A stretch of 64,000 bases of DNA from Corbicula japonica (Eukaryota; Mollusca; Bivalvia; Venerida; Cyrenidae): NCBI GenBank assembly GCA_038501625.1, contig JAZAYU010000255.1, positions 496,001 through 560,000 on the forward strand, read 5' to 3'. The notes beneath the pieces were generated by a model. It did not search any database and was not told the DNA's origin. It worked only from the letters and a program-made list of their open reading frames with translations. A program made the position numbers and the translations under genes. The first letter of the stretch is position 1, and the number at the start of each line of letters is the position of its first letter. Positions 1,820-63,575 of this stretch are shown here, piece by piece.

Positions 1820-2381
1820 ACTGAACCAAAAAAGAAACTTTCGTAAAGTATGTGCCAGTTGTTCAGACCCATAACGTAATAACGACGTTACAACAGGATA
1901 ATGCCACATCCCATGTTGCTCGTGTCAATATACAGTATTTACAAAATCATAACGTTGATTTCATCGACGACTGGCCCTCAAAATGTCCGGATTTGAACCC
2001 AATTGAACATCTCTGGGATAATCTGGATAGACGCGTACGTCGACGTGCGAACCCTCCAAACAACGTCAACGACCTTCGAACAGCATTGCTTGAAGAATGG
2101 AATAATATTCCACAGGCTGACATTAACAAACTTGTGCTCTCAATGCGACGTCGCTGTCAGGCAGTCAGCATCGCACACGGCGGTCACACACGCTACTGAT
2201 TGTTAACTTTAGAAACGACCCCTACCTTATTTTAATTTAAAATTCAACAATCAATCTGATCTTTTCCTCCAAAATGATGATTTTAAAGGAACCACAATAC
2301 ATTATTTTCAGCCAAAAGGATTGAAACTGTACTAACATATCTACAATTAAACTTGGCGAAAGTGTCTTTTTTGGTTCAGTA
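1820..2381 (+). mobile_element. internally deleted Tc1/mariner element
   Basis: Terminal inverted repeats of about 24 bp (1820-1843, actgaaccaaaaaagaaact; mirrored at 2357-2380 with one mismatch) sit next to TA dinucleotides, the usual Tc1/mariner target. Only about 560 bp separate the ends, against about 1.3-1.7 kb for complete elements, so the 5' half is deleted. The remaining coding part is the transposase C-terminus. Confidence 0.85.
1852..2199 (+). pseudogene. Tc1-like transposase, C-terminal fragment
   Basis: An open frame of 115 codons corresponds to the C-terminal part of a Tc1/mariner DDE transposase. The second catalytic Asp lies in LQQDNATSHVAR and the final Glu in PDLNPIEHLWD, followed by the usual C-terminal tail. 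Counting residues between them gives 35, one more than the 34 usual for Tc1. The N-terminal HTH domains and the first catalytic Asp are missing because of the element's internal deletion, so the fragment cannot be active. The apparent Met start is accidental. Confidence 0.9.
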
Positions 2382-10300: not shown

Positions 10301-13300
10301 CTTTTAATGTAACATCGGGGCTGAGGTAAACTTTTGCAATAAAGCGATGCTATTATTCTTGTGAGAGATTACCTGTGAGGTGAAGCCGAGCATTGACATC
10401 ATCAGAAAGAACAGAATGGACCACAAAGGAGACACCGGCATCTGGGTAAGGGCCTCTGGATATACCATAAACGTTAAACCAGGTCCTGTCAACAATTTGT
10501 CAAGCTGAAGACTTGCATAGGATTCATTGAATAGAAATTGTACAGAAATATTTATCAAACATTCGAAAACAAAAACAATTATTACATAATCACATCGTAT
10601 TTCACCTTTTTATAATCACATCGTAAACTTAAATGCCCTAACGACTATTTTAAGTATATTGAAGAGATGTAGACTTCCATGAGATTTATTAATGAGTAAT
10701 GTTTGCCTGAAATAGCAAATTGAATTGTTAATTGGATAAAGGTCAAATTAATATATGTTTAACGAATGTGTTTAAGACAGAGTTTGCAACGTTAACATGG
10801 CAACAAATGTAGTTTATTCATCCTGAACAATTTTATTACCAAAAAAACGAAACAATTTTCATAAGAGTTTATCACGTGTATTAACAGACTGTATGTCTTG
10901 ACCTTTATTCCACTTCTATTCCAACGGCAAATATGCATAGTTTGAATAACATTGTATTATGCAAACCAAGTTACCATCAGCGACCACATTAGCTACAGAG
11001 GTATGCTTGTTGTGGGCCATGAACCCTAACACAGAGAAAATGACAAAGCCAGCGTAAAAACTCGTCATACAGTTGATTATTGGTACAAGCAAGGCGTCCC
11101 TGAAATAAAACATTCGGAACAATTAAAACAATTGATTGAAGTTACTTCACCAAGACAACTTGTACTCAATGGCAAACTGTTTTCCCACTGACCGTTCCAA
11201 GGCGGTTAACCCAAGGGTTCTCTTTTTTGTTAATTAAGGATTGAATCGATATTTGATGTTTTTCATTTGGGTATGGAAAACAGTTGGTCTGTTTAAAGTG
11301 TGTGAAGCCCGAAGGGCTTCACACATACTTTAAACAATCCAAATGTTTTTCATACCCAAATGAAAAACATCAAATGTCGATTCAATCCTTATATTTACAC
11401 ATATTTAAACTCTCATAAATACAGAAATTATTAGAAGAATTTATAATATAACGGCTTTTTCTTATGGCTGTTAGAACAGCCATGTTCACGACAAAGTGAA
11501 TGACTGCACGCTTTTTCGCAACAACTCGTGGCAAAACGTGCATGCTCTGCGACGTCACAGGTCAAAACAATGTGCAACGTCCAAAAAACTGTGAACGGTT
11601 TTTCTGGAGCCACGCCTTTTAAACTATTACGTCACACTGTTCACCATTAGAAATTATGATTTCTTAGGTGAATAAGACTTCATCGTAGAGAATGAAGTTG
11701 AAGTGTAAATATTTGTTCATGGTGCCATATTTGAGATTGATATTTTTATTTAAAACTAAACTTGGGTGCTGCGGGCTGAGACTATGTTTTCTGAGTTTGG
11801 TGATTCCTGATATGCAAATTTCATTTTTTTTGTTTGTTCATATGACAACTTGTTGAGGCAAGTTTGAGATCGGTAAACCCGAAAAACTTTGCAACTGTTC
11901 GTTTCATAGCGGTAACACATCGGGTTCTCATGTTCGTTAATTGTTTTTGGCGTCTGTTTCGAAATTCATCATTGCATAAACACGTTCTCTTCTTTCTACT
12001 CTTTTGGCTGTATGGGGAAGCTGTGACAGCTGGATGTAGCTTTTCCTGATATGCCCAAGTTAGTGATGTAGAGAAGTTTCTGTCATAAACTTCTCTGGCA
12101 AATGGCGAGTTTTAACGCTTCTTAATTAAATTATTTGTTTTCGAATTCTTCAAGTTGTTTTATATGCAAAATATATATTAATTTGTTTACGGTAAAAACT
12201 CACCGCAGAGTGTTTGTTTTAAATTGGTTGAAGCTCGACATGGCAATGAGACCTCCTTGACAAATACCGAGAGAGTAAAATATCTGCACTGCCGCATCAC
12301 TCCACACCTGTAATTACAAAGGAACTTAAAACAACAACTTATTAATACTGCAAAGTCACTCCACATTGTAATGTAAAAATCGCATATGGCTACTGTCACA
12401 GTGGCATCAATCCACAATATACGAAAATATATCATAAAACAAAGTCTGCCATTTCACCTTACACATACGAATGGATCTTCAATATTCGCATCCAGATCCA
12501 CCAGAATAATGTCCAAAAATCTCAAAATTGTTTAATGTTCGTATTTTATAGTGCTAGTTTATATCAACTTTTAAGTGTGGGTCAAAACTTCTAGTAACAG
12601 AATGTAGATCAGTGCCCAAGGTTATAAAACTGAGCATGGAAACCAGTCTCAAATCTCAAGCATCTAATTGGCTGAAATGGCGACCAGTCGCCATTTCAGC
12701 CAATCAGATGCTTGAGATTTGAGACTGGTTTCCAAACTCAGCTTTATAACCTTGGAGCCTTATTCAAACGATTCAAAAAATTTGAAATACTAATGATATG
12801 AAGCTTTAAGGCTGTAATACATCATCATAAGGAAGGAAGCTATGGACCACAAAGGAGACACTGGGATCTGTGTTAATGCATCAGGATATTGTGGCAATCT
12901 GGAACTGGATTTAAACAAAGTCGACAAGTGTGAACACAAATATAGATAAAGATGGCAACCAACCGAAGCCTCTGAAAGCTTGGTGATGTTCGGTTGAAGG
13001 TAGAAGTCTATACCAGTCTGGTGGCCCTCAAGGGTCAGCCCTCTCACCAACAGTGCTGTCAGCAGAATATACGGGAATATGGAAGCAAAGTACATAACCT
13101 GTGAGTAGAACAGACAAACTATTAGCATTATATACATGAATATGGAAGAAAGTAAATAATCTTTCAATTAAACAGGCAAAATATTAATGGTTACGATGGG
13201 AATCACATGTTCGTGCAACAAGCAAATGTTTTGTCTTATAAATGGAAATGTGGGAGCAGAATATGTGTCAAGGTTATAAAACTGAGATTGGAAACCAATC

Positions 13301-18680: not shown

Positions 18681-19246
18681 TGGCTCAACAGGTTCATGTG
18701 AAAACGTACAAAATATGAAAATGTTCTCAGAATCAAATGATTTTTAACATAGATGTATATTACAACTTTCCGCGTTGGCTGGCAACAAAATTTATCGAAT
18801 GACGTCTTGCGCGTCCTTGGAAACAGCGCCACCTAGTGGAAACGGTTTTTCGCCGGGCGAAGTTTCGTTTTTGCCGAATAATTTTCGGAAAAATTGACCG
18901 ATTTTAAATTTGAAAACAGATTTGATAAGAGAAATAACAGGCCTTTAACAAAACACGAAATTTGTGTGCTGATTATTGAAGTGTTAACATTAATTCTGGA
19001 CTGCATTGCACGGGATGCAAAAATTTAATAAGTTTTTAAAGTAAATTGCTGCTTTTTAATAATAGAGTAAACCTTTTATTCAAATCTGAGAATATAATCC
19101 ATTTTATATTAAGGTCTGACCATCCTAATGCGATCTCTTCGACATCGCTACTTTCCGTCCCATTCCGGCACTTTCCGTACAATTTGATTGGCTCCCTGCC
19201 TGAATCGATTACAAACCAGTCACACCCGGTACCAGCGTTCATCAAC

Positions 19247-19694
19247 ATGGCGTCGAGAGATAATCGAGGACGCTATCTTAGTGTCAAAATAAAGAAAAAA
19301 CGTGTTTTAAGGAGTAATATTGTAATTGATCACAATTATTGTGGTGTTAATGAGATTTGTGACGACGGAACGTGCAAGAAAGAATGTTCCATCGTGAAAC
19401 ACGCAGGTATTCCCAATTGTGCGAGCCGGGATAGCTGGCGATCTGGCCGGCGTGTCATTGAGCTGGGAGTTTTGTTGGAAGGACTTCGTTTTTGTGGATT
19501 TTGTAGACTGGGTCCTATTCCGTTGACATTATATAACGTTGTTGGAGAGTTACGGAAAGGGCTGGGCGGTTATTTGTATGTCCGCTGCGAGAGCCTTGAG
19601 TGTCAGGAGGTGAACAGGGTCGCCTATGGCAAGACCCACAGATTGCGGAAAGCTGGAATGCCCTGCTTTGCAGCAAATACCAAGCTTGGTATAG
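19247..19694 (+). CDS. transposase exon 1
   Basis: Basic N-terminus (KIKKKRVLR), then WRSGRRVIELGVLLEGL, a possible zinc ribbon (CGFC...C....C), NVVGELRKGLGGYLYV and YGKTHRLRKAG. It ends ATAG|gtacgt. Open sequence upstream to 19046 lies partly outside the TIR and is not taken as coding. Confidence 0.87.
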
Positions 19695-22600
19695 GTACGT
19701 TAAACATTATATTGTTTTGTTTTTTTTAATACTTTTCTACTTTATTGTTTTCACGAAAGTAACATTTCTGCATGATGATAAAAGCCTATTTAGGGTATAA
19801 TTTATTATAACTCACAAAGTTCATTCTGAACAAAAAAAGGAAAAATCACAACGAGTCATGTTGTTTGATGTGAGTTCTACTAATTGACCTTGAGTTTGAA
19901 TGACGTCACTGTACGTAGTTTATAATGTTTATCACCTGATTCTACCATTTATGTGAAATATATCATTTGCCTGTTCTGTATGGATTTTTTAATGAATATT
20001 TCAGGCATGATTGATGGTATTGGCGGATCAGGAAAGGTTAACAACCTTCTGGCTACGCTTAACATCAAGCCAATTCCTAAGAGGAATCTCCAGAAGATGG
20101 AGCGGCGGGCAGGTCAGTTTGTGGAAGCAGTCGCTGATTCTTCAATGAAAACAGCAGCTCAGGCTGCATTCCAGCAAGAGATGAGGTATTCCATTTTTAT
20201 TACATTTAAAAAAATATTGAAATTAGTTCAAGATATATCATTTAGATTGTTATTTCTGCTAAAAATTTCAGAACTGAATAATTTTCTATAATGTTGAGTA
20301 AAATTATATATTGTTTGATAGATTTTATGAACTAAAGATAATCCAAACACCTACCATATTGATTTTTGTGTAATTTTTCAGTGACATAGCGAGTGAAGAA
20401 AAAAAGCAGGCAGCCAGTCAAATGCCAGGACTGATAGAGGACCTGGGTGTATGCTGTATGCCAGATGCATCTCCAAACACAAGGTAATTCTTAATGAAAT
20501 AATAATTAACACTTTTTGCATGTGTAAGGATAATCCTATACAACATATTATTTTTCTTAATTAATTTGCTTTCTGATGTTTTTAGCTATATAGAATTTTG
20601 TGTTTCAGGAAGATTTTCGATTCCAAAGTTGTAGTGGAGTCACCAGTTGGAGATACACTTCAACCACAATACTCCAAGGAAAAGCATATCCGAAGACCAC
20701 GAAAGGTGATCTCCAGCAAGGTGAAGCGCAACATCAGTTCCAGCTTTCCATGCAAAACTAGATTTGGCATGAGTTGCGCTGTTGACACTGCTTGGCAAAA
20801 AAGAGGCTTTAACAGTCTGACAGGTATTAAAAGTCAGTTTAATTTTTATAGAATGAAATATTTTTTTTACATATTGATACAAACTAACATTACAAGTTAG
20901 CAAAGTTATTCAATAAAAATGTGTTTTGGCTTAAGACAGTACACATTTTCCACAGCACATGCATGATTTATGTTTGTACTTTTCTTTGAATTAATTTGTA
21001 ATTAAATGAAAATGTTATTTGATTAATCATTATAGCCCACACATTCTTCATGTCCATGTCTCGCTATGGGAAAAAGGTGTTGAAGAGTCTAGTCAGCCAC
21101 AGGCAGTGTGCAACTTGTACTTGGTGGCGTAGAAACCGGCCTGGTCAGAAGGTTCGAGAACATAGGTATGTCTTTGATTCTTTAAGTTCTTGCAAAGTAT
21201 TGATTTTTTTTTTCTCCAGCCGTTTAAAATAATTAAGACACCAATAATTACATAGCACATACTTTGGTTCATAAATATAAAATAATCATAGTTTTAATAC
21301 AATCAAAACAAATCTTAAAACATACCAACTTGCACGATGGTGCTGTTTAATTACATTGCATGAGGAGGTAAGCTTATCAAAATTCTACAATCTTGTTGAA
21401 AAGGTGTGTCCTCAACCACTCTAGAAGTGCCAGACTGATGGAGGCAACGAGTGGTGAAAGAGGGTTTCTGGACCTGGCTGCAGAAGGAACACCCGTCGAA
21501 TACTGTGAGGGGGATGGAGACACAACACTACTGGCCAGGCTCAAGACTAACCAAGGAATGGACATGAAAAAAAGGTTTGACAAGAACCACATTATGAAAA
21601 ACATTGGCAAGAGCCTCTATGCATTACAGACTGAGAAGGGTGTTAAAATCAGTAAGATAAGCATTGCCCATCTACAAAAGTGCATTTCATATGCCTTATC
21701 CAAAAACAGTGGTGATGAACTGGGACTGAGGGAAAATCTAGAAGCTATTGTGCCACACAACTTTGGTGATCACACCAAGTGTATGCCCAGATTTTGCCAC
21801 CAAGTGAGGAATCCGGACGTAGAGTACATCCACCGTTCCCTCCCCTATAAACACAGTCTGTCAGGCGAGAAGCTGCGATCCAGACTGGATGAAATCATGG
21901 TTCCAGTTATCGCTAAAGTTGAACAGCTGGTTGACCTGGGCAGCAGCCAACAGTGCGAGCACGCCAACCGTGAGGTGACTCTAAGAGCACCAAAGAACAT
22001 CCACTATGGCGGCACAGAGGCACTAGACTTCAGGGTACAGGCAACGTCAGCATTCATAAATGAAGGACGCCACTACATAGCAAAGGTATCTAGCTAAAAA
22101 GTGTTTATTGTTACTTGTTTGAGAGATTTTGATTATTTTATTTTTGCGTTCGTCTTTGTTGCTATTGTTCTTCAAGTTGAATATGTGAGTTTTGATTGTT
22201 ATATTTTAATTTTTTTTTTATTTTACAGTTTCTGCAGATGTTATAGTTTCCAGTTCCAATTTCCAGCAAGGATTGCACAGAATTAAAAGGTATTTTACTG
22301 TAAACTAGTCATAGTCTTTACCCCTTTACTCCATAGATATACATTGATTGCATGGGAAAACAGGGTAGATCCAGATCAGCTGGCACATCCATGCTGTCTG
22401 ATCAGGATCTGCACTGTTTGCTTTTTTGTAAATAAATACTTAATAAATCAAAATGTGAACAGTGTAGATCTTGATCTGGCAACACAACTGAGGCAGCTGA
22501 TCTGGATCTGCACTGGTTGTAAATGCGTGAAAAGGCGTACATATGTAGGAAAGGGTTAAAATAAATGTCTTCCTATTATTTCTGATTTCATATATGTAAG

Positions 22601-24396
22601 CACATGTACTGCTTTTGTGGATTATTATCATAATTGTTAATATTTTTGGTTAATTTTATTTTGAAACAGTAACAAACTTTTCATGACAACAGTTTTTAAA
22701 ATATGTACTCTGTAATTTTGTTTTCATTGATAGGTGAATTCTGCATGTGGTATTTCACCCGGCTTATACACAGTTGAGTATGCAGATAGGTGTGCCCGAA
22801 AGAGGAAACATGCCCAAGAAGTATGTGACCTGCCCTCTACCAAGAGACGAAGACTAGCTCTAAAACAGGAACGTACAGTCAACCAAATAGCTAAAGAGTC
22901 ATTGGAAGGATTATCATACCAGTCTGGTATTCATTTTTACTTTCCGTTTTATTTTCTTTGTCTAACTTCTATTATTTCAACTTAACATTGTTTTTAAAAT
23001 TTCATGATTTCAAATTAGCGTGGTAAGTTTTTGAACATGTACATATAGTACACTTTCATTATAATGAAAGTACATGTAAGTCTTAGACCAAAAACCATGC
23101 CAAGAATACCAAGTATAAGTTTTTAATTGAAGCTCCTTTAGGTTTGAATGAAGTTAAATTGGTTAATATTTTTACTTTGATCCTACACTGCGTGATTCTT
23201 ATATGACCTTTATTTTACTATCACTTATCCAGGTATTGGACACAACACTGATGCTGACATTGACACCATACCAGAGCCTGTGCCTAGGGGTGTATTCAAG
23301 CCTGTGGTGATTACAAGACCTCCATCATACATCGTTTTTGACTTAGAAACAACAGATTTAAGTATGATAATATATTCGTATTAATTCTTTTCATTTTGCT
23401 TGATCATAATCTTTTTAATTGTTTGCATGTTGATTTACTGAAAATGCATATAAGTTAAAACATCAGAAACATGCGTGTTATTTATATTTCAGTTACTTAT
23501 GCAAATCAAAAACTGAAAAAATCGAAAAACTATGTCATGGTGTGTCCATTGTTTCAGTACGAGGAGATCAACATCCACACATAACACAGATTGCTGCTGA
23601 AAATGTCCAGTCTGGTTCTGTGTTCGATGAATATGTGGTGCCTTGTGTCCCCATTTCATCAGCAGCTGAGAGGATCACCAAGATCTGCATGAAAAATGAA
23701 AAGGACATGATCGTCAATGGAATTCAAGTGCAGGCAGTAGGAATAAAAGAGGCGCTTACTGCTTTCATTAACTGGTTAAAGTCTTTTCAAGATATTGTCT
23801 TGATAGCTCACAATGGACGGAGGTTTGATTTTGTTGTATTGACTTCTGTCTTAATGAAGTGTGGTGTATTTGAAGATTTTTCTGGAACTGTTTCGGGATT
23901 GGTTGATTCCATTCCCGTGTTTAAATGTGTGTTTAAAGACCAGTCTAGCTACAAACAAGAAGACCTTGTTCGCAATGTTTTGCACCAGGAGTATGATGCA
24001 CACAATGCCATCAATGATGTCAGATGCCTGGCTTTACTTGTAAAACATGCTGTCACCATTGACAACAAGTGCTTAATAAAAAAAAGTTTCATCCCTAGTG
24101 ACATGCAGCTTACTATTCAGGGTAACAAGGAAAAAAAGCACAACCTACCAAGTCTGACAAGTTTGATTTACAATGGAGTCGTGAAATTGTGTACGGCTGA
24201 GAACATTGCTAGCTCAGGGCTTAATCTTTCACATCTGAAAACTATATATAAAAGACATGGTGAGGATGGACTGTACAATGTTTTTCTAATGAAAAACAAT
24301 CTTGGACAACCAAGGGTTACCAATGTTAAAAAGACCCTGGAGTCGGTGATTCCAAAACTTGCAAAGTTTTTGGAACAAAATGATAATGCTGCATAG
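19247..24396 (+). CDS. DDE transposase fused to DEDDh exonuclease (nine exons, 972 aa predicted)
   Basis: Predicted exons are 19247-19694, 20005-20185, 20382-20483, 20609-20823, 21036-21165, 21404-22085, 22734-22926, 23233-23361 and 23558-24396. They sum to 2919 nt, with matching phases at all eight junctions and no internal stop. The N-terminal two-thirds has the Mutator-like transposase order: WRSGRRVIELGVL, CxxC pairs, GKTHR, VDTAWQKRGFNSLTG (first catalytic Asp), GDGDTTLLARL (second Asp), then CEHANREVTLRAPKNIHYGG (likely the Glu region). The C-terminal third is a DEDDh exonuclease: FDLETTDL (Exo I), HNGRRFDF (Exo II), YDAHNAINDV (Exo III). Known DEDDh enzymes trim 3' DNA or RNA ends, and a role in processing transposon ends or gaps is inference. 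The Met at 19247 (caacATGg) is the first inside the TIR. Confidence 0.88.
20005..20185 (+). CDS. transposase exon 2
   Basis: The acceptor atatttcag and donor ATGAG|gtattc bound it. It encodes GMIDGIGGSGKVNNLLATLN and KPIPKRNLQKMERRAGQFVE, the helical segment before the catalytic core of Mutator-like transposases. Confidence 0.87.
20382..20483 (+). CDS. transposase exon 3
   Basis: The acceptor atttttcag and donor ACAAG|gtaatt bound it. It encodes SDIASEEKKQAASQMPGLIE and CCMPDASPNT, and continues the reading frame on both sides. Confidence 0.82.
20609..20823 (+). CDS. transposase exon 4, first catalytic Asp
   Basis: The acceptor gtgtttcag and donor GACAG|gtatta bound it. It ends with MSCAVDTAWQKRGFNSLTG, the D-x-[AS]-W-x-x-R-G motif marking the start of the RNase-H-like DDE core. 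Confidence 0.9.
21036..21165 (+). CDS. transposase exon 5
   Basis: The acceptor cattatag and donor CATAG|gtatgt bound it. It encodes SMSRYGKKVLKSLVSHRQCA then CTWWRRNRPGQKVREHR. The C-x2-C pair followed by a basic run is where this transposase family has a short Cys motif. Confidence 0.85.
21404..22085 (+). CDS. transposase exon 6, second catalytic Asp and Glu region
   Basis: This is the largest core exon. It opens CVLNHSRSARLMEA, then YCEGDGDTTLLARLKTNQ (second Asp), KNIGKSLYALQ, a helical insert, and CEHANREVTLRAPKNIHYGG with a following helix. The acceptor (gttgaaaag at 21403) has a poor pyrimidine tract, so the boundary is fixed by phase and similarity rather than by a strong site. The donor is GCAAAG|gtatct. 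Confidence 0.88.
22335..22560. repeat. foldback-like 'gatccagatcagctggcaca' repeat inside the transposase intron
   Basis: Diverged inverted words (gatccagatcagctgg, gctgatctggatctgcac) frame an AT-rich middle. Relatives are at 30440-30660, about 50960-51010 and 63520-63575. It is an independent repeat family. Confidence 0.65.
22734..22926 (+). CDS. linker exon 7 between transposase and exonuclease
   Basis: The acceptor ttgatag and donor TCTG|gtattc bound it. It encodes a Gly/Pro turn (GISPGLYTVEYADRC) and a strongly basic stretch RKRKHAQE...STKRRRLALK that could serve as a nuclear localisation or DNA-binding signal. Confidence 0.82.
23233..23361 (+). CDS. exon 8, start of DEDDh exonuclease (Exo I)
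   Basis: The acceptor ttatccag and donor TTAA|gtatga bound it. After an acidic linker it encodes SYIVFDLETTDL, the hydrophobic-DxExT motif that supplies the first Asp and Glu of the DEDD active site. Confidence 0.88.
23558..24396 (+). CDS. exon 9, exonuclease Exo II-III and C-terminus
   Basis: The acceptor tgtttcag joins so that a split Ile codon links DLETTDL to RGDQHPHITQIAAE. Exo II is IAHNGRRFDFVVL. Exo III is EYDAHNAINDVRCL, whose His classifies it as DEDDh. About 120 further residues (PSLTSLIYNGVVKLC and a helical C-terminus) follow to TAG at 24394-24396. Confidence 0.9.
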
Positions 24397-25232
24397 TTAA
24401 GGAATGATGATAAAAAATGCATGCTTGTTGGCCAATGGTTCCATATGATGTATTTGCAGTATTATAAGAACTGAAAACACACTCCCTATCTTTATTGTTT
24501 TTTATCATTACAATTCATTAGCTCCTCTCTTTCAACTTGTTTTACAAGGAAAAAATATGTAAAACAACAGTTTTTATATATTTATTGATTAATTATCTCA
24601 TTATTTATTAGCCATAGTGAAAACTTATATATTTTAGATGTTTATTGAAAACAAATACTGTGTTTACTTAAAATATTCAATCTTGTAATTTGATAACTGA
24701 ATTAGCCGATTTTCACAGTGTGTGTGTTTCATGCCAATTATTTTTATATTTCCATGGTAAATGTTTTTTGTCATGCTTTTATTTTGTTGTGCTAGTGCTA
24801 AGAAAAATTTTGATACCCTTTTTAGGCCTGGCTCTATAGACATTTGTGACAAAGAGCATTTTGTTTTAATGCCATATTTGCGGACATTGGAAAAACAAGA
24901 CTTCAAGTTTTCAAACTTACTTATTTGTTTTATTATTTATGATTCTTTCTTTTTACAAATGATATAAGTTTACTTTATTTATATGTACTATACCATAACA
25001 AATAAGAAAATGCAAGAAATCTGAACATTTTATGTCTTTTTGTTGAAGAATGGTGCATTTCATATCATTGTGGTTGGCGGCCATCTTGAAAATGTTAAAT
25101 TTTGGGGTTGGGTTACAAAAAAATCAATTTCTCAAAAACGGTACGGTAAAATTTTTTAATATTGCGTATTTAAATGACTAATACAATACCATTACTGAAT
25201 ATATTATCAAAACTAAAGTTCTTAACTATGTC
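24397..25232 (+). other. 3' untranslated/terminal part of the transposon
   Basis: AT-rich sequence between the stop codon and the 3' TIR. A patch gtggttggcggccatcttga at about 25070 stands out, but no ORF is convincing. Confidence 0.55.
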
Positions 25233-25497
25233 CATTAGGATGGTCAGACCTTAAATGTCCATTAGCCTACATTTAACGTCTGAGTTGTCTGTGTCAAGTT
25301 GGGCTGTGAAGCCCTAATTATTGTATTTATGGGGCATAAACATGAAAAATAACGGAAATGACATCAGTCTGTTTGTTTGTCTGTCTGTGTCGGAATCGCA
25401 TAAAAGCTTCCGTTTGTTCAAGTAAAAACGTTAAAAATGCGCCTGCGTAAGAGGAAATTTTATAAAAAAACAACACATCAACCTACGTCAATTTTCA

Positions 25498-30439: not shown

Positions 30440-30660
30440 CATGGAATAGGGATTTTGTTCATGGGCTAACAGTGAAGATACAGATCAACCGGCGAATTTA
30501 ATCAGGATCTATACTGCTCGCTTTTTGGTAAATTAGGTTATTTCGGACCAGTTAGCGAACAGTGTAGATCCTGATCAGACATTAAAGATGTGCCGGCTGA
30601 CCTGCATCTACAAAGATCGCACATGCGATAAAATCCGCATATATAAAATAAAGGGTTAGA
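30440..30660. repeat. 'gatcctgatcag' foldback repeat
   Basis: This is the same family as 22335-22560: gatcaaccggcgaatttaat and aacagtgtagatcctgatca flank an AT-rich centre. Confidence 0.6.
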
Positions 30661-46189: not shown

Positions 46190-46312
46190 TAAGGGGTAAC
46201 ATATTAAAACCTCCGTAACTCCCTTATGCCCCACTCGCCAGAGTGCAAACAAACTGCAAAATATCCAGGACATAACAGGCTTTCAGAAAAATCATGTCTA
46301 CAAAATTCCCCA

Positions 46313-46335
46313 AGGGGGGGGGGGGGGGGGGGGGA
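46313..46335 (+). repeat. poly-G tract
   Basis: About 21-22 consecutive G residues near the right end of the TIR element. This is a likely length-variable and error-prone position, and a potential G-quadruplex. Confidence 0.9.
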
Positions 46336-46365
46336 GCAAACATGTTCCTGGCCACCGGCCTATAT

Positions 46366-47097
46366 GATCACAAAACTGGTAAACTGGTAAACCTTTCTCT
46401 TCGGCAAGGCATTTTTCCCGAGAAATATAAAAAAGCAATTGTTAGACCACTGTTAAAGAAAGTAGGGCTAGAACTTGAACTTGTGAACTACAGACCAGTG
46501 AGTAACCTTTCTTTTCTCTCAAAAGTTATCGAAACAGCGGTTCTCTCAAAGTTGAACGCACATGCTTCTACACATAACTTGCTCCCGAAGAACCAGTCTG
46601 CCTATAGGCGATTTCACTCATGTGAGTCGGCGCTTCTACGGCTAGTCAATGATATTTTGGGTGGAATGGAGAAACAGGAAGTGACGGCCATGATTGCAAT
46701 AGACCTTAGTGCCGCGTTCGATACAGTCGACCATGACATATTGCTAGATGTCCTCCATTGTCAATATGGCGTAGCGGACTTAGCTCTCAGTTGGATGGAC
46801 TCGTACCTGAGACCACGTAGTTATCAAGTCAGCGTAAACTCGTCTTTGTCGTCATCGAGACCACTACAATGTAGCGTCCCTCAGGGCTCATGTTTAGGTC
46901 CCTGGCTCTACCTTGCTTACGCAGGAACATTGTTTGACGTCATTCCACCAACTATTTCATTGTACGGATTTGCAGATGACCATATTGCAAACAAGCGTTT
47001 CCGACCATTACCGGAGACTGAATCAAGAGCAATCAAAGAACTTGAGCAGTGTGCAATTCATATAAATGACTGGATGAAAAAAACAAACTCAAAATGA
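46366..47097 (+). pseudogene. LINE ORF2 part 2: reverse transcriptase
   Basis: Reads [54 protein letters not shown] (catalytic Asp), [13 protein letters not shown] and [13 protein letters not shown] (FADD active-site box). Open frame extends left through the poly-G tract of the neighbouring element, but only from about 46366 is it LINE. It ends at a stop at 47095-47097 that follows a run of A. Confidence 0.9.
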
Positions 47098-49927: not shown

Positions 49928-52222
49928 GTAAGTTCACAAAAATTTATTAAATTTGTTATTTTAATAATACTTCTCAATTTTTTTATACATTGCTTTCCTA
50001 AATTTCTTAGACATACTATTATGATTGCTGAAAATGAATTGATGATACAGATGAAAATATTTAATATGAAAAATCTCATGTCAAAAAGATTTTGGCCATG
50101 CTTTATGTCTGATAATTATTATTAATGCAAACAATTATTTGAAACTGTTGAAAATATTAACTGGTTGTCCATAAAGTTAATATGAATATCGCCTATACAT
50201 AAAAGTATACTATAAGACAAAGATTCAGCAATTTGGTAGATTGTAAATTTGTTAATTATTTGTTATTTACCATTTCATATGTTACCAATAAAAATAAGTA
50301 TGATCATTAGTTGTGATCATTGACTTATACTATTTGAATAGCACAGATAAGACAATTTTAACTTTTAACCCTTTCTTAACTGAAATCTGTAACTGTCAAA
50401 TTCAAATAACAGTGACCCCATTATGTCATTAGATAAGGAGATAAGGTGTTGATTTAATCAGCAACTGTGTGATTAGCTAAGTGGTTGATTTAATCAGTAA
50501 CTTGACACATGTTGTTATTTTGGGATCACAATATACATCATTTATCACAACTAATTGATGCTACTAAATCAGTGGTTTCATTTAATGTTATTTATGTTCA
50601 ATTATTTCTATCCTTTTATATATTAGTAAATATAATATAATATTTTTATAACATTTATGTATTGGTTTATATATGTCTTATTTAAATCATTTAACTTTTA
50701 ATTGCTGATGGCTGGTAATGTAGACCCAGTGTTTAGTGTAAACCTAGTATCTACACTGTTGTTCATTGTTTTTAATAGGTTGTGATTTTGGTAGTTGGCG
50801 CGAATGATGTTGTGAAACCTACATCCATACTTAGAGACATCAGTGAGCTGTGTCACCTTATTCACCGATCTAACTCAAGGTAATTTAAGCAGATGTTAAC
50901 TTTTTTAAGCATGTTACCTTTACTCAATGTAGTATATCGAAGAAGTGACAAGTGTTTATCCAGGTCTTAAGGCACTGATGTGCAAGCTGATCTTGATCTA
51001 CACCTGTAGCAATGTAAACATTTACAGAATAAAGGGTTTAGAGAAAATAAGAAATTTTATTCTAAATGTATAAGCATATGTTGTTAATTTTATAGTCAAG
51101 AATTACAAAATTATATTTGCATTTTCTTTGTAAAGAAAGTTATTATTCCTTTACATCAAATGATAATTTAATACTGATTCTCAAGTAAATGATCACTGCA
51201 TTTTAACAACTTTATCTTTTTTAATAATGATAACTTATGAATATTAAATTTATGTTAAATATATGTTTAATTATTTAATAACATTTTATTCTGGCAATGT
51301 ATATATTTATCAGTAAGAACATAGATGAATTTCTGACAGCTACTTGATAATTTCAATATACAGTATTAGGGGGATTTAGTTTCCTGTATATTGGCCCCTG
51401 TCTGATTAGCCTTGCCTCTCTCCCTAATCTTAGTTACTGATATCATTGGATAAAGCATGACAGCTAATTTGACAGTTGGCGGAGTTGTTATATGATGGAG
51501 GAGGAGTTAACACTGTTAAGAAACCAAGTTAATCATGACTAAATTATGCATTTAATTATTACATGAATTTTGCAGTGATTGTTAAAATACAATAATAAAA
51601 TAATGATTCAAGGAGATTTTACACTTTATTAAATTTACTCAAATTTCAAACATATTTCATTATTTTTTAAAATTACGGTAAGATGTCATGCACTTGTATC
51701 ATTTTAACATTTTGTTTCAATATTTTCAGTGCAAATGTAGTCTTGACCAACATCCTTCCCAGAGGTCAAAACCACTTCCATGGGCGTAGATTGCCGGCAG
51801 CTTTCCTACAGCGATTCAATCAGGAGGCACGTGAAGTGAATAAATTACTGGAAGAGTTCTCTATGAATGAAGCATGGCTTAGTTACAACAGTGTAAATTT
51901 CCAAATACATCATACTGGAAAAGATCACTGGGTAACTTCACTTAAATTTAACAACGCAGTACATTTGATTGACAGTTTAGGAACTGATAGGCAAAATGCT
52001 ATATTAACACAGTCATTGAAAATTCAACTTAGTCAAATTTATGGTAAAATGTGTAAAAACTCTCTGAACATACAAATTCCAGAAACACAACGTCAAAATA
52101 ATAGTGTTGATTGTGGTGTTTTTGCGATTGCCCATTTGGTTGAATTTTGTATTACCAGTTCTTTCAACAACAGGGTTATTTTTGATACTAAGCAAATGAG
52201 AAGTCATTTATTGGACTGTTAA
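49808..52222 (+). CDS. SGNH-hydrolase-like / Ulp1 (C48) protease protein, three exons
   Basis: Exons 49808-49927, 50779-50879 and 51730-52222 join in phase. The first two and the start of the third form an SGNH-type fold: FPGYRIEDFINEECI, VVILVVGANDVVKPTSI (the G-x-N-D block) and NVVLTNILPRGQ. The third continues into a Ulp1-like cysteine protease: KDHWVTSL (His), VHLIDSLG (Asp) and RQNNSVDCGVFAIAHLVEFC (Gln, then Cys). Ulp1 enzymes cleave SUMO-like modifiers, and copies in transposons are well known though their role is unclear. The N-terminal start is not found. TAA at 52220 ends this frame early: the same frame continues into a PHD finger. Confidence 0.82.
50779..50879 (+). CDS. SGNH exon b (G-x-N-D block)
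   Basis: The acceptor tttaatag and donor TCAAG|gtaatt bound it. It encodes VVILVVGANDVVKPTSILRD and ISELCHLIHRSNS, the block containing the oxyanion-hole Asn of SGNH hydrolases. Confidence 0.78.
51730..52222 (+). CDS. SGNH end and Ulp1 protease exon
   Basis: The acceptor attttcag precedes TGCAAATGTA. VLTNILPRGQNHFHGRRL and NKLLEEFSMNEAWLSYNS close the SGNH part. HWVTSLKFNNAVHLIDSLG and QNNSVDCGVFAIAH hold the His-Asp-Gln-Cys set of C48 proteases. All four positions are present. Confidence 0.88.
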
Positions 52223-58120: not shown

Positions 58121-58636
58121 TTGTATTTTACACACGGCCCTCGGTGCCAAAGTTTATGTTGTATGTGTTTAAGAACACGGCCCCCGGTGCCGTTGTTGTG
58201 TGGCCCCCGGTGCCAAGTATTTTGTGTTTTATGTGTTTGAGAACACGGCCCCCGGTGCCGTTGTTGTGTGGCCCCCGGTGCCAAGTATTTTGTGTTTTAT
58301 GTGTTTGAGAACACGGCCCCCGGTGCCGTTGTTGTGTGGCCCCCGGTGCCAAGTATTTTGTGTTTTATGTGTTTGAGAACACGGCACCCGGTGCCGTTGT
58401 TATGTGGCCCCCGGTGCCAAGTATTTTGTGTTTTATGTGTTTGAGAACACGGCCCCCGGTGCCGTTGTTGTGTGGCCCCCGGTGCCAAGTATTTTGTGTT
58501 TTATGTGTTTGAGAACACGGCCCCCGGTGCCGTTGTTGTGTGGCCCCCGGTGCCAAGTATTTTGTGTTTTATGTGTTTGAGAACACGGCCCCCGGTGCCG
58601 TTGTTGTGTGGCCCCCAGTGCCAAGTATGTTGTATA
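58118..58636 (+). repeat. 68-bp GC-rich minisatellite, about seven copies
   Basis: ggtgccgttgttgtgtggcc starts units at 58186, 58254, 58322, 58390, 58458, 58526 and 58594, nearly identical. Each unit carries ggcccccggtgccaagta and gagaacacggcccc. The Pro/Gly/His-rich open frames on both strands are by-products. A degenerate precursor of the unit is at 57195-57300. Confidence 0.95.
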
Positions 58637-63050: not shown

Positions 63051-63519
63051 ACTAAAGAACTTGAACAACAGTCAAAATAGTGTACTCTTTGTTAAATAGA
63101 TGAAAAGGGAAAAGAGGACGACGTTCAAGAAATCTAAAGAACTTGAACGACAGTCAAAATAGTGTACATACTCTTTGTTACAGATCATCGCTGAAAACAC
63201 GTCTTCACACGTTAAAATTCTGACAGAGTGATTTTTCCTATACGAATTTCTATAAATAGAAAATATATTGAGCTGAGCAAATGGCGAGGAGTTGCATTCT
63301 ATTTTTAGATTGAAGCAACGAACGTTTGAAGAACGTTTCTGCATACGATTGGCCAATGTATAAATAGAATCTGACGCTCTAAGAACGTCACACAGCTGTA
63401 CAGCGCGCAAAATATCTAAATATAACTCTATATTTAAAGATTCACAAACTGAAGTAAAAAATTCGCATCACATGACTTTTCTATAGATAGATTCGCAAAA
63501 CGTATGTAAAACGTTGTGA

Positions 63520-63575
63520 AGATCCAGATCTGCCGGCACATTCATGCCATCTGATCAGGATCTGCACTAGTATCC
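63520..63575. repeat. fragment of the 'gatcaggatctgcac' repeat
   Basis: gatccagatctgccggcaca and tctgatcaggatctgcacta match the left half of 22335-22560. Confidence 0.65.

What the first reader, a model, noticed from the sequence alone, without database searches (positions are those of the whole stretch)
19109..25254. Apparently intact TTAA transposon whose transposase is fused to a DEDDh exonuclease
Perfect terminal inverted repeats bounded by TTAA enclose a single nine-exon gene. All eight predicted splice junctions keep phase, and the summed coding length is 2919 nt with no stop before the end. The protein combines a Mutator/Kolobok-type DDE core with a C-terminal exonuclease keeping all three motifs (FDLETTDL, HNGRRFDF, YDAHNAINDV). 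Fusion of a cut-and-paste transposase with a 3'-5' exonuclease would suggest a built-in end-processing or repair step. The motif assignments are seen; the function is inference.
Basis: partly seen in the sequence, partly recalled or inferred. Interest (0 to 1): 0.85.

Follow-up and report, generated by a model that had tools for sequence, protein, structure and literature searches.

The report
Kolobok transposon with fused exonuclease
This is a young, multi-copy cut-and-paste DNA transposon, probably in a bivalve, whose single protein joins a transposase to a DNA-trimming exonuclease; that kind of element was described in 2022, and the newer point is that its exonuclease half resembles the tail of the vertebrate PML protein and may share its origin.

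Summary
Window 19109-25254 is a complete TTAA-bounded element with 22/22-nt matching ends, one nine-exon gene model and a 2919-nt open frame (972 aa). The protein carries a Mutator/Kolobok DDE core, a DEDDh exonuclease and a C-terminal Pfam 'PML_C' module. Four loci of this family lie in the same 1.07-Gb genome at unrelated sites, each flanked by TTAA; one other full-length copy is 99.6% identical with an intact frame. A second family here has the same fusion, TTAA-bounded ends and the same late intron positions. Relatives with the fusion occur in molluscs, a brachiopod and insects. Of 39 aligned rows, all 37 with no gap there keep the five DEDDh residues, and all 32 with no gap there keep DDE. 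This matches KolobokD, named by Kojima and Bao in 2022, who already proposed 3'-end degradation: a new family of a known lineage. Not found in print by my searches: the exonuclease half is closest among solved structures to Plex9 (PML-like) and carries PML_C. KolobokD may be kin to, or source of, PML's exonuclease-like tail; my tree cannot settle direction.

The parts
19109..19112 (.). left TTAA target-site copy
   Evidence: three other loci also flanked by TTAA
19113..19130 (+). left terminal inverted repeat GGTCTGACCATCCTAATG
19247..19694 (+). exon 1 (start ATG 19247; N-terminal region)
   Evidence: similar N-termini in relatives such as P0002 and P0006
20005..20185 (+). exon 2
   Evidence: tblastn to other families
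20382..20483 (+). exon 3
20609..20823 (+). exon 4; first catalytic D in AVDTAW (aa 301-306)
21036..21165 (+). exon 5; CATC of the CCHC zinc finger
   Evidence: hits run on without a break past this exon end in the C24, C755 and C74 relatives
21404..22085 (+). exon 6; rest of the CCHC finger, EGDGDT (second D), DKNH (DxxH), second zinc finger, CEHAN (E)
22358..22518 (.). imperfect inverted repeat inside intron 6, resembling repeats elsewhere in the window; probably a nested small repeat
22734..22926 (+). exon 7; end of the transposase half and basic linker
23233..23361 (+). exon 8; linker and Exo I motif FDLETT
23558..24396 (+). exon 9; rest of the DEDDh exonuclease and PML_C module (aa 889-958), stop
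25233..25250 (-). right terminal inverted repeat
25251..25254 (.). right TTAA target-site copy

Best explanation
A KolobokD-lineage DNA transposon, recently mobile. Shown: TTAA-bounded copies at unrelated sites, one open gene model spanning both halves, conserved active-site residues in both halves. Inferred: the zinc fingers and DDE core of the 972-aa protein bind the terminal repeats, cut the element out and join it into TTAA. A DEDDh 3'-5' exonuclease with a SAM-like tail (PML_C) is tethered by a flexible linker and trims 3' single-stranded ends or flaps on the excised element or at the donor break during repair. About 0.9 for 'KolobokD transposon with a real fusion protein'; about 0.5 for 3'-end trimming as the main role of the exonuclease.
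For: Ends and frame. Four loci in the genome by both the 5' and the 3' end query (counts are lower bounds): the window; C387, full length, 99.6%, intact 2919-nt frame; C616, full length, 96.3%, frame broken by small deletions; C74, an internally deleted derivative 2.5 kb long. All four are flanked by TTAA and their 1-kb flanks show no similarity. Pfam: Mutator 1.3e-49, PML_C 1e-16, RNase_T 2.5e-7. Of 38 Mutator-bearing relatives that I chose and aligned, 35 match RNase_T and 34 PML_C. With the window (39 rows), 37 have no gap at the five DEDDh columns and 37 of 37 keep all; 32 have no gap at DDE and 32 of 32 keep it. The two halves diverge together: Mantel r 0.80, 0 of 2000 permutations as high, 35 of 39 rows. 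Of five other loci fetched here, four carry both halves in the same order and strand; splice positions near residues 651 and 694 are shared. Second family with TTAA ends and inverted repeats matching 16 of 18, score 12 against a control maximum of 9 in 200 placements. Nonsynonymous differences are below the saturated synonymous ones in both halves (pN/pS 0.21-0.35 in exon 6, 0.41-0.55 in exon 9, three loci). A fused relative folds as two mostly confident regions with a low-confidence linker at 557-569. KolobokD definition: PMC9587614.
Against: No transcript was seen. No reference KolobokD sequence from Repbase could be compared. Between the window and C387 copies, 6 of 9 coding nucleotide changes alter an amino acid, so recent copies show no visible constraint. 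No convincing inverted repeats were found for C24 and C755. Two of 39 rows were set aside at the DEDDh columns and seven at DDE because of gaps; one row (P0017) has N at the first exonuclease D. Trimming activity, substrate and need for transposition are untested; human PML-1 PXL and Drosophila Exu have the fold without the conserved catalytic set (PMC12934764, passages).
Confidence: 0.88

Rival explanations
1. Two genes: a transposase and an independent exonuclease gene that happen to lie between one pair of ends.
For: No RNA evidence in hand; intron 6 is 648 nt long and holds a repeat; many predicted proteins carry only the exonuclease half (a search limited to proteins of about that length).
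Against: Frame and phase run through exons 6-9. Both halves occur in one predicted protein in molluscs, a brachiopod and insects; one relative (P0012) has an 873-aa protein on a contig of 2842 nt, so with no room for large introns. Shared splice positions in other families. Co-divergence of the halves.
Confidence: 0.04
2. The exonuclease serves to counter host defence or rival elements (degrading cytosolic or nuclear DNA/RNA) and is not part of the strand chemistry.
For: Its closest solved relatives are Plex9 chains; [quoted passage not shown] the article is not held).
Against: It is in the same predicted polypeptide as the transposase, and the two halves diverge together, which suits action at the transposase's own DNA.
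Confidence: 0.25
3. The exonuclease half works as a nucleic-acid-binding module, its catalysis being minor, as reported for Exu and PML-1 PXL.
For: Foldseek aligns the Exu EXO+SAM chain 5l80_A over 318 columns (rmsd 12.9, so the two parts are probably oriented differently); PML_C by Pfam.
Against: [quoted passage not shown]
Confidence: 0.12
4. The element is dead or domesticated and the frame is intact by chance or by host use.
For: One of three full-length copies is broken; few copies were found.
Against: Two copies with intact frames at unrelated TTAA sites, 99.6% identical, plus a deletion derivative indicate recent mobility.
Confidence: 0.07

Closest known systems
KolobokD (Kojima and Bao 2022, PMC9587614)
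   Same: TTAA target, RR...YY ends, DDE with DxxH, two zinc fingers, DEDDh exonuclease; reported from molluscs, arthropods and cnidarians
   Different: Not compared with their sequences (supplements could not be opened here); the paper notes similarity to exuperantia, TREX and ERI1, its main text has 0 occurrences of 'PML', and the passages I saw mention no SAM/PML_C module
KolobokE and KolobokP
   Same: Kolobok transposases with an added nuclease and the same second zinc finger
   Different: KolobokE has a lambda-exonuclease-like nuclease, KolobokP a His-Me nuclease and long terminal direct repeats; neither seen here
Plex9 / PML exon-9 domain
   Same: DEDDh fold; Plex9 chains are the best PDB matches by sequence and structure; PML_C at the C-terminus
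   Different: No transposase; PML-1 PXL lacks the catalytic set (PMC12934764)
Exuperantia
   Different: pseudo-nuclease; in the two searches with the window-type queries bacterial PolC scores slightly higher (60.7 against 55.4 bits), and the tree does not fix its place
TREX1/TREX2
   Different: much weaker sequence match (51.4 bits at best against 171.1 for the best Plex9-type chain)
piggyBac
   Same: TTAA target
   Different: ends here are RR...YY and the transposase is Mutator/Kolobok type

Membership tests
KolobokD | TTAA target-site duplication | tested here: met
   4 of 4 loci flanked by TTAA, flanks unrelated
KolobokD | 5'-RR ... YY-3' termini (PMC9587614) | tested here: met
   GG...CC at 3 of 4 loci, GG...TC at the fourth (C74), all RR...YY
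[quoted passage not shown]
   window residues present; DDE in 32 of 32 ungapped rows of 39
KolobokD | zinc finger between DxxH and E | tested here: met
   GDHTKCMPRFC in window; H, C, C kept in 37/37, 37/37, 38/38 ungapped rows
KolobokD | CCHC zinc finger downstream of the first D | tested here: met
   CATC...HRC in window, once exon 6 starts at 21404; C, C, H, C in 36/37, 38/38, 37/38, 38/38 ungapped rows
KolobokD | DEDDh exonuclease encoded with the transposase | tested here: met
   RNase_T 2.5e-7; five residues kept
KolobokD | groups with published KolobokD transposases in a tree | not tested
   Repbase/supplement sequences not available
KolobokD | transposes | not testable with these tools
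   only copies and identity seen
KolobokP | long terminal direct repeats of about 450 or 660 bp | tested here: not met
   no such direct repeats in 19000-25400
[quoted passage not shown]
   no such Pfam match among the 5 families listed
piggyBac | piggyBac-type transposase and ends other than RR...YY | tested here: not met
   the only transposase family in Pfam is Mutator; ends GG...CC
PML/Plex9 EXO+PML_C group | DEDDh domain followed by PML_C | tested here: met
   PML_C 1e-16 at aa 889-958 after the exonuclease at 684-852; 34 of 38 relatives match PML_C
PML/Plex9 EXO+PML_C group | Plex9/PML nested inside transposon exonucleases (descent from the element) | tested here: inconclusive
   Plex9 stands beside the transposon group with weak support 87/63; AU tests reject none of four alternatives, p 0.45-0.64; no PML sequence was in the tree
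Exuperantia | common descent of its EXO domain with these exonucleases to the exclusion of bacterial DnaQ | tested here: inconclusive
   structure and two phmmer searches favour it; a tree with Exu among the bacterial rows had a higher likelihood than the free tree, p-AU 0.62

The most novel reading that the evidence does not exclude
KolobokD transposons are the source of the exonuclease-plus-PML_C module of vertebrate PML (exon 9) and fish Plex9, and possibly of insect Exuperantia: domesticated transposon tails, active in Plex9 and decayed to nucleic-acid binders in PML-1 and Exu, much as Kojima and Bao argued for KolX and P2X7.
Probability: 0.4. Interest if true: 0.8.

Novelty: new member of a known kind. 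Interest (0 to 1): 0.45.

Why it matters
It gives an intact, recently mobile KolobokD family on which the role of a built-in exonuclease in cut-and-paste transposition could be tested directly. If the kinship with PML and Plex9 proves to be descent from the element, part of a well-studied human tumour-suppressor and antiviral protein would be a domesticated transposon module.

Tried and rejected
Exon 6 from 21425 (2898 nt) was set aside for 21404. piggyBac, KolobokE and KolobokP were rejected on ends or domains. The scan with alignment A2 was not possible. Three trimmed rows (P0015, P0186, P0129) were dropped before the tree. The tree is soft: in three of four AU tests the tree with rows held together had a HIGHER likelihood than the free search had found. 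Exu has a very long branch (2.48), and the tree with Exu among the bacterial rows was one of those three. The pdb_via ranges barely cover the C-terminal helices (model residues 34-244 spanned), so the SAM-like match rests on Foldseek's 5l80_A row (rmsd 12.9) and on Pfam. With the whole fused model the 50 rows shown are exonucleases or EXO-like domains, so the transposase fold was not tested against PDB. No tRNA, and no Rfam match at gathering score, in the window.

Paper searches for a link between PML (or exuperantia) and a transposase, transposon or Kolobok found 0 papers. One search listed 7 papers, of which I opened only PMC9587614; one search listed only that one; searches listed only PMC12934764. 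The 2023 PML/Plex9 article is not held and was not read, so the link may be in print there or elsewhere. Seen: PMC9587614, outline, passages and sections 3, 10, 16; PMC12934764, outline and passages.

Unanswered: whole-genome searches with the exonuclease protein, the transposase protein, the end pattern, the joined flanks and the exon 9 DNA never returned, so I cannot say how many exonuclease copies, short end-only copies or empty sites the genome holds.
Full report
What is there. Window 19109-25254 is bounded by TTAAGGTCTGACCATCCTAATG and its exact reverse complement; these are the only two matches at up to 3 mismatches in the window, and 100 shuffles give none. Between the ends lies one gene model with nine exons and GT-AG introns. 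My first exon 6 boundary gave 2898 nt. In the C24, C755 and C74 relatives of the same genome the hit runs without a break across this junction. The 21404 acceptor has no clear pyrimidine tract and the downstream one is also in frame, so alternative use is possible.

Protein. Pfam finds Mutator (PF20700, 1.3e-49), RNase_T exonuclease (PF00929, 2.5e-7), PML_C (PF25244, 1e-16) and, below their cut-offs, an Exuperantia RNase H-like and an Rv2179c-like domain. First D, second D, DxxH and E, both Kolobok zinc fingers and the DEDDh residues are present in the window protein.

Copies. The 5' 292 nt and the 3' 455 nt each find the same four loci in the 1.07-Gb genome; the tool says such counts are lower bounds. 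C387 is full length, 99.6% identical and has the whole 2919-nt frame; C616 is full length, 96.3% identical, with its frame broken by small deletions; C74 is a 2.5-kb derivative that lacks most of the interior. All four are flanked by TTAA and their 1-kb flanks are unrelated. This is independent insertion, not segmental duplication. Between the window and C387 copies 6 of 9 coding nucleotide changes alter an amino acid, so no constraint is visible at that depth.

Other families in the same genome. Exon 6 DNA gave 28 matches. Of five loci that I chose from the more distant ones, C24, C129, C74 and C30 carry both halves in order and C755 only the transposase half in the stretch read. C74 has no stop inside a hit; the other four have at least one, and some of these hits may run into introns. 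The splice positions near residues 651 and 694 are shared in C24 and C74. For C74:517697-525493 a TTAA-bounded pair of inverted repeats (16 of 18) was found with score 12 against at most 9 in 200 random placements; nothing above control was found for C24 or C755. Of two near relatives of that element, C291 matches at 99.6% over 6155 columns, keeps the right TTAA end and shows no left end in the stretch read; C2 matches at 99.4% over 4226 columns plus shorter pieces, reads AACA in place of TTAA at the left end and shows no right end in the stretch read.

Relatives elsewhere. The protein database holds predicted proteins with Mutator, an exonuclease-type domain and PML_C from Mactra, Ruditapes, Mytilus, Haliotis, Pinctada and Saccostrea, and from Magallana, Crassostrea, Argopecten and Lingula; Mutator-exonuclease proteins without a listed PML_C come from Ischnura, Phymastichus and Prorops. 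In an alignment of 38 Mutator-bearing relatives chosen match Mutator, 35 RNase_T and 34 PML_C. With the window added (39 rows), 37 rows are ungapped at the five DEDDh columns and all 37 have D, E, D, H, D; 32 are ungapped at DDE and all 32 have it; the rest were set aside for gaps, and one row, P0017, has N at the first exonuclease D. Distances in the two halves correlate (r 0.80; 0 of 2000 permutations as high; 35 of 39 rows). Between families in this genome synonymous sites are saturated while nonsynonymous differences are fewer in both halves (three loci). The exonuclease is thus old in the element and its catalytic residues are kept.

Known lineage. Kojima and Bao 2022 (PMC9587614; sections 3, 10, 16 read, the KolobokD passage seen) define KolobokD by this combination, in molluscs, arthropods and cnidarians, and suggest that the exonuclease would degrade DNA intermediates from the 3' end during transposition. 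Full-text search for 'KolobokD' finds only that paper.

How it most likely works. Shown: independent insertions at TTAA, fusion at the gene-model level, conservation of both active sites. Inferred: the transposase half cuts and joins; the tethered exonuclease trims 3' ends of the element or of the donor break. Anti-defence degradation or mere binding remain possible.

Verdict.

Noticed in passing
P0165 and P0168: KolobokD-type exonuclease in predicted proteins with CAP-Gly (both) and C2H2 zinc finger (P0165) domains and no listed Mutator domain; beside the Lingula transposon exonuclease in the tree (98/86). Possible host capture of the module.
   Followed up: partly
window 12793-13167 (-): frame matching the sodium:neurotransmitter symporter family (3.7e-19); whether the transposon lies inside or beside this gene was not worked out.
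   Followed up: no
window 46276-47094 (+), 51671-52219 (+), 1825-2196 (+): reverse transcriptase, weak Ulp1-type peptidase and DDE_3 frames, probably other mobile-element traces.
   Followed up: no
window 22358-22518, 30460-30612, 63516-63571: imperfect inverted repeat in intron 6 with relatives elsewhere in the window, probably a small nested repeat.
   Followed up: partly
window 19150-19184: two copies of a 15-nt repeat (ACTTTCCGTCCCATT / ACTTTCCGTACAATT, starts 20 nt apart) just inside the left end; possible transposase-binding repeats.
   Followed up: no
window 21166-21403: intron 5 seems absent in the C24, C755 and C74 relatives, where the hit is continuous: an intron gained in this family or lost in the others.
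   Followed up: partly
window 58136-58633: 68-nt tandem array, 7.4 copies at 96% matches.
   Followed up: no
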